DNA of 21,806 nucleotides from a virus. The position numbers were made by a program, and so were the translations under genes. Positions within the stretch are counted from its first letter, which is position 1, and each line of letters opens with the position of its first letter. Below, piece after piece: positions 3,742 through 18,595 of the stretch. The notes beneath the pieces are model-generated. The model saw only the letters and a list, made by a program, of their open reading frames with translations, was not told the DNA's origin and made no database searches. The stretch spans positions 1 through 21,806 of the IMG/VR virus record IMGVR_UViG_3300046028_000081. One strand, given 5' to 3'.

Positions 3742-3768
3742 GCCCCTACTTGCGTGGGGGCTTTTTTT
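3742..3768 (+). terminator. Rho-independent terminator after the scaffold gene
   Basis: GCCCCTAC (3742-3749) pairs with GTGGGGGC (3754-3761) through eight base pairs, including one G-T pair, around a TTGC loop. Seven T residues follow at 3762-3768. It lies 28 bases after the scaffold stop and should end transcripts of the head gene string. Confidence 0.88.
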
Positions 3769-3778
3769 CGCCTATACT
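3750..3778 (+). promoter_or_regulatory. Weak candidate promoter inside/after the terminator
   Basis: TTGCGT (3750-3755) and TATACT (3773-3778) are separated by 17 bases. The -10 matches 5 of 6 consensus positions and the -35 only 3 of 6. A start near 3785 would begin a transcript just before the pseudoknot element. The motif GCCTATAC recurs after the second T-run at 3883-3890, so the match may be part of a repeated context rather than a promoter. Confidence 0.25.
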
Positions 3779-3784
3779 CCAAAC

Positions 3785-3879
3785 CGTTGTCGTAGTGGTC
3801 AACAGTATTTAAAGCCATTTACTCATGCCTCGCCCCTGTTTTGGGGAACCACTACGGGGCAGCAGTAAGTGGCTTTTTT
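3785..3879 (+). ncRNA. Pseudoknot-capable RNA element ending in a T-run
   Basis: Two long stems cross each other. CGTAGTGGT (3791-3799) pairs perfectly with ACCACTACG (3848-3856). AAAGCCATTTAC (3811-3822) pairs with GTAAGTGGCTTT (3865-3876) with one G-T pair. The second stem runs into six T residues (3874-3879), as in an intrinsic terminator. Inside, CCCC (3833-3836) can pair with GGGG (3843-3846), or GCCCC (3832-3836) with GGGGC (3856-3860), giving alternative folds. The element lies between two transcription units with no coding frame. It could be a small stable RNA, a switchable terminator or simply a second terminator. The pairings are seen in the sequence; the function is inferred. Confidence 0.45.
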
Positions 3880-3891
3880 ATTGCCTATACG

Positions 3892-4045
3892 TCATCCGTA
3901 CTCCAGACGATACCAGTGGGTCTGCATGGACTGCTTGGAAGAAAACACAGGGCTTGGATACACCCCCAAGATAACCCTACTAGCCTGTCAGCGAGGGACT
4001 AGGGTAGATATTGGTACATGGGTGGGACAAGCCAATATCGGATGA
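3892..4045 (+). ncRNA. Candidate multibranched structured RNA domain 1
   Basis: A non-coding stretch closed by TCATCCG (3892-3898) with CGGATGA (4039-4045). Inside are four local hairpins in series: CAGAC (3904-3908) with GTCTG (3920-3924); CTTGG (3953-3957) with CCAAG (3966-3970); ACCCTA (3974-3979) with TAGGGT (4000-4005); and ATATTGG (4008-4014) with CCAATAT (4032-4038). Several perfect nested stems inside one closing stem, in a region lacking any open frame, suggest a folded RNA. I do not recognise the class. The same DNA could instead be a packaging or recombination site. Confidence 0.35.
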
Positions 4046-4048
4046 ATC

Positions 4049-4136
4049 GCTGCCTCAAGGGTACTCTGGCTAGAGCATTAATCTATGCTCCCTGCGGGAG
4101 AGGGATGGAGTCAATGGCTACCACCCTTGGGGAAGC
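4049..4136 (+). ncRNA. Candidate structured RNA domain 2 with 13-bp closing stem
   Basis: GCTGCCTCAAGGGT (4049-4062) pairs with ACCCTTGGGGAAGC (4123-4136): 13 pairs, one of them G-T, with a single G/A mismatch, enclosing 60 bases. Inside are GAGCAT (4073-4078) with ATGCTC (4085-4090), and the overlapping alternative CTCCC (4088-4092) with GGGAG (4096-4100). These last two share bases and cannot both form, which hints at two conformations. It follows domain 1 directly and ends 16 bases before the -35 box of the capsid promoter. Function unknown. Confidence 0.4.
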
Positions 4137-4152
4137 TATGCCTAAATAAATG

Positions 4153-4183
4153 TTGACACACTGGAAAAAGTGATATATATAAT
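4153..4183 (+). promoter_or_regulatory. Strong sigma70-type promoter for the capsid operon
   Basis: TTGACA (4153-4158) and TATAAT (4178-4183) both match consensus perfectly, but the spacer is 19 bases. Overlapping alternatives are TATATA at 4176-4181 (17-base spacer) and TATATA at 4174-4179 preceded by TGA at 4171-4173 (extended -10). The spacer holds a dyad, CACT (4159-4162) and AGTG (4169-4172). An 8-bp inverted repeat, TATGCCTA (4137-4144) and TAGGCATA (4191-4198), brackets the whole promoter and could be an operator pair. It sits downstream of two terminator-like hairpins, as expected for an independent high-level capsid transcript. Confidence 0.75.
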
Positions 4184-4189
4184 GTAAGC

Positions 4190-4325
4190 ATAGGCATATC
4201 TGGCAACAGACCCTTAACCGCAGTGGATGCTGTAGATTGGCTGGCTTAACCAGCAAGCATTCGGCCCTGACTCTCAGGCTTACCGTGGCGAGAACCCTGA
4301 TCAATTAACTAAACGAGGTATCCAA
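4190..4325 (+). promoter_or_regulatory. Structured 5' leader of the capsid mRNA with ribosome site
   Basis: From the likely start near 4187-4190 the leader holds a small hairpin TCTG-GCAA-CAGA (4199-4210) with a GNRA-type tetraloop. Next comes a larger hairpin closed by ATGCT (4227-4231) with AGCAT (4256-4260) and containing GCTGG (4240-4244) with CCAGC (4250-4254). A third hairpin is CCTGA (4266-4270) with TCAGG (4274-4278). The last ~40 bases look unstructured and carry GAGG (4315-4318), seven bases before the capsid ATG. A stabilising leader on the most abundant late mRNA is plausible but unproven. Confidence 0.4.
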
Positions 4326-17769: not shown

Positions 17770-17961
17770 ATGACAACATACAAATTGACGCTAGATCCAA
17801 TTACAAAACAAGACGGAAACATGGTGTTTTGCTCTGATGGTATTTGGATTCCACAAGACCCCGACAACACCGACTACCAAGCCTTTTTAAAGTACCAAGC
17901 TGAAGGCGGCAAGGTCTATGGCGCAGATGAGGAAGTCCCTAATGGGCAAGCCACTGAATAA
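17770..17961 (+). CDS. Small tail-associated protein with altered C-terminus
   Basis: A 63-aa protein starting directly after the previous stop, with GGAG at 17760-17763. It reads YKLTLDPITKQDGNMVFCSD, then GIWIPQDPDNTDYQAFLKYQ and AEGGKVYGADEE. Small proteins of this type ('...IP.DP.N.DYQ.(F/Y)L.WLAEGN.PEPADE') are common after phage tail-fibre genes, and their usual C-terminus is AEGNTPEPADE. Here that ending is changed, while the expected ending is found at the C-terminus of the next gene, an HNH endonuclease (see the repeat entry). The last 20 bases overlap the endonuclease start. Function unknown; a fibre-assembly role is possible. Confidence 0.7.
   Translation: MTTYKLTLDPITKQDGNMVFCSDGIWIPQDPDNTDYQAFLKYQAEGGKVYGADEEVPNGQATE
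17899..17932 (+). repeat. Direct repeat flanking the HNH gene (partner 18551-18584)
   Basis: GCTGAAGGC starts at 17899 and 18551. GCAGATGAGG starts at 17923 and 18575. The spacing between the two blocks is 24 bases in both copies, so 34 bases align without gaps, with 19 identical at the ends and about 3 of 15 in the middle. The copies encode AEGGKVYGADEE in the small tail protein and AEGNTPEPADEV at the end of the HNH protein. The offset (652 bp) nearly equals the HNH gene length (654 bp). Confidence 0.75.
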
Positions 17962-18595
17962 CCTACAAGGCTTTCGCTTTGGTAGCCTGACTGTTTTGCA
18001 GTTGGGGGAGAAGCAACGCCAGCACAACGGTGCTTGGTGGCTATGCTTGTGCGACTGCGGCACTCAAAAGAACATTCCTGCTACTGACATGGTTCAAGGA
18101 AAGATTAGTTCGTGTGGATGTGAACACGCCAAACGCATTGGCAAGGCAAGTGAAACGCATGGCATGAGCAAAGGAAGAACGTACCGTATTTGGATGGCTA
18201 TGCGGAATCGTTGCAACCGCATCAACCAAGACTATTCATGCCGTGGCATTACATACGATGAGCGTTGGGATTCTTTTGAAAACTTCTTGTCTGACATGGG
18301 TGAAGTGCCAGAGGGCATGAGCCTTGACCGCATTGATGTGAATGGCAACTACTGCAAAGCAAATTGTCGGTGGGCTACCCGTGAGCAACAGGCAAACAAT
18401 ACAAGAGCAAATGTATTTATTGAGTGGGATGGCAAGCGTCAAACCAGAACACAATGGGAAAGAGAGTTTGGAATGAAACCTACAACATTAAGGTCACGGC
18501 TTTGTGCTGGTTGGCCTATGGAGAAAGCAATGCAACCACTTGCTTGGCTGGCTGAAGGCAACACACCAGAGCCAGCAGATGAGGTGACAGGGTGA
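17942..18595 (+). CDS. HNH-type homing endonuclease with zinc ribbon, fused to a captured C-terminus
   Basis: A 217-aa protein from ATG 17942 (AGGA at 17930-17933; an earlier in-frame ATG at 17918 lacks a good site). Residues 1-62: MGKPLNNLQGFRFGSLTVLQ and a cysteine cluster (LCLCDCG, then SCGC) likely to bind zinc. Residues 80-150: RIWMAMRNRC, YDERWDSFENFLSDMG, then SLDRIDVNGNY and NCRWATREQQANN, the core of a phage HNH-type nuclease in which the usual D-H pair reads D-R. Residues 160-197 form a DNA-binding helix region (TRTQWEREFGM, LRSRLCAGW). The last ~20 residues (LAWLAEGNTPEPADEVTG) do not belong to the nuclease and match the expected ending of the preceding small tail protein. It overlaps the next gene by GTGA. 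Confidence 0.82.
   Translation: MGKPLNNLQGFRFGSLTVLQLGEKQRQHNGAWWLCLCDCGTQKNIPATDMVQGKISSCGCEHAKRIGKASETHGMSKGRTYRIWMAMRNRCNRINQDYSCRGITYDERWDSFENFLSDMGEVPEGMSLDRIDVNGNYCKANCRWATREQQANNTRANVFIEWDGKRQTRTQWEREFGMKPTTLRSRLCAGWPMEKAMQPLAWLAEGNTPEPADEVTG

What the first reader, a model, noticed from the sequence alone, without database searches (positions are those of the whole stretch)
3785..4136. Large structured non-coding region between scaffold and capsid genes
About 350 bases with no gene hold several long, mostly perfect stems: 13 pairs between 4049-4062 and 4123-4136, 7 between 3892-3898 and 4039-4045 enclosing four hairpins, 7 between 4008-4014 and 4032-4038, and the crossed stems at 3791-3876. 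In a genome where genes otherwise overlap by a few bases, keeping 611 bp free of genes implies selection. It may be an undescribed phage structured RNA, or a DNA site for packaging or recombination. I do not recognise it as a known class and cannot compare it here with large ornate RNAs such as ROOL, GOLLD or HEARO.
Basis: partly seen in the sequence, partly recalled or inferred. Interest (0 to 1): 0.78.

Follow-up and report, generated by a model that had tools for sequence, protein, structure and literature searches.

The report
Two-part structured RNA shared among phages
Between two capsid-assembly genes this virus of bacteria carries a real two-part folded RNA, found in more than a hundred other uncultured phages, whose first part is swapped between close relatives as if it set their identity; its job is unknown.

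Summary
The gene-free stretch contains a two-module RNA locus. Module A (3784-3879) is a ~95-nt RNA with its own sigma-70 promoter, a covarying pseudoknot and an intrinsic-terminator stem. Module B (3896-4146) is a larger RNA with two further covarying pseudoknots. 101 of 103 usable A copies are followed by a module from one of two sequence clusters, holding several types (B1 here, B2, B3, B4, and Rfam's Betaproteobacteria-1). Covariation is strong: A, 201 double-change cells versus 59 shuffled; B1, 31 of 37 pairs compensated. The window itself has no Rfam match. At this site related phages are empty, carry A-B1, or carry A2-B2 with an HNH gene. In several pairs A is 64-70% identical while B is 96-100%, so A behaves as an exchangeable allele. 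Best reading: an accessory phage ncRNA locus in which A is a type-specific recognition RNA and B a conserved effector or read-through RNA; this mechanism is inferred.

The parts
3742..3768 (+). Intrinsic terminator after the scaffold gene; its hairpin also holds the -35 of the module A promoter
   Evidence: Terminator scan; terminator present in empty relatives too
3750..3778 (+). Sigma-70 promoter of module A: TTGCGT, 17 nt, TATACT; -10 ends 7 nt before GUUG
   Evidence: Position-fixed promoter upstream of 85 A copies, 78% score >=9 versus 1% of control positions; the scan did not list this one (TTGCGT is a weak -35)
3784..3879 (+). Module A: P1 3786-3789/3800-3803; pseudoknot 3791-3799/3848-3856; P2 3813-3823/3864-3874 and 3826-3828/3859-3861; U-run 3874-3879
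   Evidence: Alignment A1 and pair counts; swap test; model R1 85.7 bits (window not independent of the model)
3896..4146 (+). Module B, type B1. Core helices 3897-3899/3907-3909, 3919-3922/3929-3932, 3950-3957/3966-3977, 3980-3983/3999-4002, 4007-4013/4033-4039; pseudoknots 3902-3906/3935-3939 and 3989-3994/4047-4052; 3' closing stem 4053-4061/4124-4132
   Evidence: Alignment A2 and pair counts; closing stem
4153..4183 (+). Sigma-70-like promoter of the capsid gene (TTGACA ... TATAAT); downstream neighbour, not part of A-B
   Evidence: Sequence; kept in empty relatives in varied form
4190..4325 (+). Structured 5' leader of the capsid mRNA; separate from A-B and present in relatives without it
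   Evidence: 36 sequences, 8 of 17 predicted pairs with double changes

Best explanation
The region is an accessory, exchangeable, phage-borne non-coding RNA locus of two modules. SHOWN by comparison: A is a ~95-nt RNA placed at its own sigma-70 promoter, with a 5' hairpin whose loop pairs with a strand inside the following stem, ending in an intrinsic-terminator stem and U-run; B is a larger RNA with two further pseudoknots, next to A in nearly all copies; in several lineages A is exchanged far faster than B and the flanks while keeping its internal complementarity. INFERRED: transcription from the A promoter mostly ends at the terminator, giving free A RNA, and partly reads through to give A-B RNA; B is the conserved working part; A's loop and partner strand are a type-specific recognition signal, acting between A molecules (intramolecular pseudoknot versus A:A pairing in trans), much as short phage RNAs set immunity type or tune their own longer transcript (IsrK of Gifsy-1, CI RNA of P4).
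For: A structure and covariation. Promoter at fixed distance. B1 covariation. Nearly constant A-B linkage. Exchange of A with B and flanks kept: L046/L124 A 0.70, B 1.00; L335/L382 upstream 0.98, A 0.68, B 0.98. Whole-cassette exchange between the window and L083. Phage-restricted spread. Precedent for a short terminated form and a read-through form that interact: IsrK; and CI RNA of P4 (PMC4825925).
Against: No expression data. No complementary target of the loop elsewhere in the same contigs (own 74 versus 74.7 swapped). Excess pairing of the loop with the A-B linker is weak and does not follow allele swaps. The window phage looks like a T7-type lytic phage, where immunity RNAs are less expected. 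The pseudoknot may simply be an intramolecular fold; some pairs with near-identical B also share A.
Confidence: 0.35

Rival explanations
1. A large ornate RNA working in trans by assembling into homo-oligomers, as GOLLD and ROOL do; self-complementary A loops would let only same-type RNAs assemble.
For: Phage-borne, unknown function, pseudoknot-rich; extra inserts with tRNA-like arms in some copies (L006, L293), recalling tRNAs in the GOLLD linker; GOLLD and ROOL form RNA-only cages (PMC12286853).
Against: Much smaller than GOLLD or ROOL; no Rfam match; a terminator separates A from B; the inserts are not called as tRNAs.
Confidence: 0.17
2. A selfish mobile intergenic element: the RNA cassette spreads by homing with an adjacent HNH endonuclease, HEARO-like in layout; most copies, including the window's, have lost the nuclease.
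For: Empty and full sites in close relatives; HNH ORF 6-8 nt after B2 in about ten contigs; unrelated insertion contexts.
Against: Most A-B copies have no HNH beside them; conserved promoter, pseudoknots and A alleles are not needed for a homing site; no defined target sequence found.
Confidence: 0.15
3. A cis-acting leader: A and B control elongation or termination into downstream genes (PUT/EAR-like antitermination or attenuation).
For: Promoter-A-terminator-B order; A at the transcript start; most neighbours co-directional, 68 of 91 downstream.
Against: 23 of 91 nearest downstream ORFs point the other way (simple ORF calling); no constant downstream gene; in the window the capsid has its own promoter and leader; most relatives do without it. 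PUT and EAR are recalled from memory and were not compared.
Confidence: 0.15
4. A is a decoy or antitoxin mimic against a host defence, such as type III toxin-antitoxin systems, its alleles matching host toxin types.
For: Small hypervariable pseudoknot with its own promoter and terminator; a phage that escaped ToxIN by RNA-based mimicry is known (abstract of PMC3475682).
Against: Not a repeat array; no Rfam match to known antitoxins; does not explain the steady partnership with B.
Confidence: 0.08

Closest known systems
Betaproteobacteria-1 RNA (Rfam RF02932)
   Same: It is itself one B type: it lies directly 3' of a module A in L278, and of an A-like element in L416.
   Different: The window's B1 and types B2-B4 do not match it; several bacterial copies lack an obvious A; A is not part of the Rfam family.
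GOLLD and ROOL RNAs
   Same: Phage-borne, pseudoknot-rich, function unknown; tRNA-like inserts in some copies.
   Different: No model match; about 350 nt in two modules with an internal terminator, not 600-800 nt.
IsrK (Gifsy-1) and CI RNA of satellite phage P4
   Same: Short phage RNA from its own promoter with a terminator and read-through form (IsrK); complementarity-based immunity (P4 CI).
   Different: No sequence or Rfam match; no ORF or gene target found for A; pseudoknotted; the short form is not yet observed.
HEARO (OMEGA-type RNA with HNH ORF)
   Same: Structured RNA followed at once by an HNH ORF, in the B2 type only.
   Different: No HEARO match; the HNH protein is ~110 aa with only an HNH domain found; the window's B1 has none beside it.

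Membership tests
Betaproteobacteria-1 RNA (RF02932) | Match to the Rfam covariance model above the gathering score | tested here: not met
   Window: no match. L278 module B matches at 104 bits, so only that B type is a member.
GOLLD / ROOL | Match to the Rfam models | tested here: not met
GOLLD / ROOL | Assembly into RNA-only oligomers | not testable with these tools
   Needs biochemistry or cryo-EM
HEARO | Match to the HEARO model | tested here: not met
   B2-bearing loci L276, L404, L408 also unmatched
HEARO | HNH ORF directly after the RNA | tested here: inconclusive
   Met for B2 in about ten contigs; not met beside the window's B1
P4 CI / IsrK-type immunity RNA | Short structured RNA with terminator and read-through form | tested here: inconclusive
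   Promoter and terminator predicted and conserved; transcripts not observed
P4 CI / IsrK-type immunity RNA | Complementary target sites in the same transcript or genome | tested here: inconclusive
   Strong complementarity inside A; none elsewhere in the contig; weak excess in the linker
Type III antitoxin RNA | Tandem pseudoknot repeats next to a toxin gene | tested here: not met
   One A copy per fetched locus; the genes after A-B named by Pfam/PHROGs include no type III toxin (only the top 25 PHROGs were shown)

The most novel reading that the evidence does not exclude
A previously undescribed class of phage RNA system in which a small self-complementary pseudoknot RNA, exchanged as alleles between phages, acts as an RNA-only self/non-self tag that controls a partner ornate RNA: RNA immunity or incompatibility types across many unrelated phages of uncultured bacteria.
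Probability: 0.2. Interest if true: 0.93.

Novelty: new variant of a known kind. Interest (0 to 1): 0.8.

Why it matters
It adds a widespread, strongly supported RNA family, absent from Rfam except for one of its downstream partner types, to the few elaborate phage ncRNAs whose function is unknown. Allele-like exchange of a self-complementary pseudoknot between otherwise near-identical phages is an unusual signature that points to specificity and makes a function directly testable. It also places the orphan Betaproteobacteria-1 RNA, in at least some phages, inside a larger two-module locus.

Tried and rejected
DNA packaging or recombination site: RNA-type G-U pairs, carried by only 20 of 84 distinct relatives, unrelated positions elsewhere. 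Decayed gene: no conserved frame; conservation follows base pairs. Known Rfam RNA: none in the window; even at E<=10 only terminator-like or chance hits. tRNA or tmRNA: none; tRNA-like inserts in relatives are not called by ARAGORN. The enclosing stem 3892-3898/4039-4045: not conserved. Loop targets elsewhere in the contig: none above chance. Loop pairing with the A-B linker: a weak excess, not trusted, because it does not follow A allele swaps (L036, L046, L124) and relatedness is not controlled. A bacterial home: in about 400 genomes of the order of the one GTDB hit, A gave that MAG (a 7.9-kb contig, possibly phage) and one weak hit, B1 two weak, chance-like hits. BLAST in isolate phages: only environmental assemblies from Manatee Spring gave meaningful matches. 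A constant downstream partner gene: none.

Full report
OBSERVATION. The window is a T7-like podovirus fragment (head-tail connector, T7-type scaffold, capsid). Between scaffold (end 3714) and capsid (start 4326) lie 611 bp without a conserved gene. Rfam 15 has no match in the window.

EMPTY AND FULL SITES. The fetched loci that carry both scaffold and capsid give 84 distinct intergenic sequences. Their length is bimodal: about 190-260 nt (64 distinct) or 586-935 nt (20 distinct). The short form has only a terminator, the capsid promoter and the leader; the long form has an insert between terminator and capsid promoter. Closely related phages differ: the window and L083 share 65 exact bases on the left and 121 on the right, 96.9% of the scaffold gene, 99.3% of the leader and 98.7% of the capsid start available, yet one holds A-B1 and the other A2-B2 plus an HNH gene.

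MODULE A. A relative in MW202484, at an unrelated genome position, led to a pattern for module A. BLAST in 50,697 phage records found A only in that environmental record. Alignment of 77 copies supports a 5' hairpin, a long terminator-like stem and a pseudoknot between the hairpin loop and a strand inside that stem: 96.3% of cells paired versus 86.4% shuffled, 201 double-change cells versus 58.7, five of six tabulated pseudoknot pairs compensated. Within one RNA the loop and its partner pair over 7.7 bp on average; with partners swapped between RNAs, 4.24 +/- 0.13. There are 29 paired loop sequences among 80 RNAs. A sigma-70 promoter sits at a fixed distance: 78% of 85 loci score >=9 versus 1% of control positions, the -10 ending 6-7 nt before GUUG in 80 of 85. 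The transcript start is therefore predicted at the 5' hairpin. The search pattern fixed some bases of the long stem and the U-run, so conservation of those bases is partly by selection; the loop and its partner were not in the pattern. Model R1 also finds the A2 versions that precede B2, which the pattern did not select, at 23-30 bits.

MODULE B. The stretch after A was clustered by single linkage. Of 103 copies with enough sequence, 88 fall in one cluster that joins several types by shared segments, 13 in a second (B3); L300 and L343 stand alone. In the window the type is B1, found by nhmmer in 119 fetched loci (some loci overlap the same contig, and some were fetched by a B1 pattern). On 32 sequences a 37-pair structure with two pseudoknots has 31 pairs with double changes, 93.7% of cells paired versus 70.6% shuffled, and a covariation score of 0.635 versus 0.218 shuffled and at most 0.152 when slid. 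I chose this structure by inspecting the same alignment, which favours it somewhat. Model R2 also picks up B4 members weakly, suggesting a shared fold. One B type is Rfam Betaproteobacteria-1 (L278). A few B1 copies have a different A-like upstream element (L211, L159) or none that I recognised (L164, L273). Quick tests on B3 and B2 gave 16 of 33 and 8 of 37 pairs with double changes, without the controls used for A and B1.

A IS EXCHANGED LIKE AN ALLELE. In several pairs of close relatives A differs far more than its neighbours: L046 versus L124 A 0.70, B 1.00, leader 1.00, scaffold 0.95 (some capsid values in that table are artefacts of truncated loci and are not used). L335 versus L382: upstream 0.98, A 0.68, B 0.98. 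Conversely L036 and L124 share an identical A with scaffold DNA at 0.88. This is not universal: other pairs with near-identical B also have near-identical A. Of 19 pairs with B at least 93% identical, 7 share the loop. Relatedness was not modelled formally.

CONTEXT. A-B sits at the scaffold-capsid junction of these podoviruses and near early or replication genes of others. No downstream gene is constant. About three quarters of nearest neighbours are co-directional (71 of 96 upstream, 68 of 91 downstream). An HNH ORF starts 6-8 nt after B2 in about ten contigs.

MECHANISM. Shown by comparison: RNA structure, promoter, terminator-like stem, linkage of A to B, and independent exchange of A. Inferred: A is released as a small RNA, some transcripts read through into B, and the variable self-complementary loop is a recognition signal. 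The nearest working analogues are IsrK, whose short form and read-through form interact, and the P4 CI RNA (PMC4825925). No target other than A itself was found, so an A:A interaction, an intramolecular fold diversified by pressure from some partner, or an unknown host target all remain open. GOLLD-like assembly (PMC12286853), homing, cis control and antitoxin mimicry are weighed as rivals.

The 7-bp stem 3892-3898/4039-4045 is not conserved (68% paired). The outer part of the 13-bp stem is replaced by a covarying pseudoknot 3989-3994/4047-4052. The stretch 4190-4325 is a different structured RNA, the capsid leader, present with or without A-B.

LIMITS. No expression data; the hosts are unknown (the nearest named phage by capsid is Methylophilales phage MEP301, 77%); scans of IMG/VR were capped, so counts are lower bounds; habitat labels were not available. 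The papers that first described Betaproteobacteria-1 RNA could not be read here.

Noticed in passing
window 4190-4325: The capsid mRNA leader is itself a conserved structured RNA, found in relatives with and without A-B; 8 of 17 predicted pairs show double changes in 36 sequences.
   Followed up: partly
L083 6220-6561, L394 7201-7533 and about eight further B2 contigs: A ~110-aa HNH endonuclease ORF starts 6-8 nt after the conserved 3' end of RNA type B2.
   Followed up: partly
L006 ~2430-2590, L293 ~930-1050, L184: Inserts between A and B or inside B carry a T-arm-like hairpin (GGTTCGA) closed by a long stem, tRNA-like by eye but not called as tRNA by ARAGORN, and in L293 not by Rfam.
   Followed up: partly
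L279, L298, L301 after module A: Type B3 contains TGTGGATAA motifs that read as DnaA-box-like DNA or as an RNA hairpin.
   Followed up: no
L349, L294 and other loci with the 'FDRFW' protein (26 loci share this ORF family): The open frame of a replication-initiation-like protein begins in or next to the 3' end of module B.
   Followed up: no
window 17918-18595: The window encodes a phage HNH endonuclease (phrog_374, E 2e-61), not adjacent to A-B.
   Followed up: no
L415, L422, L423 (G256): One bacterial genome carries three Betaproteobacteria-1 matches, two above the cut-off, without an obvious module A.
   Followed up: no
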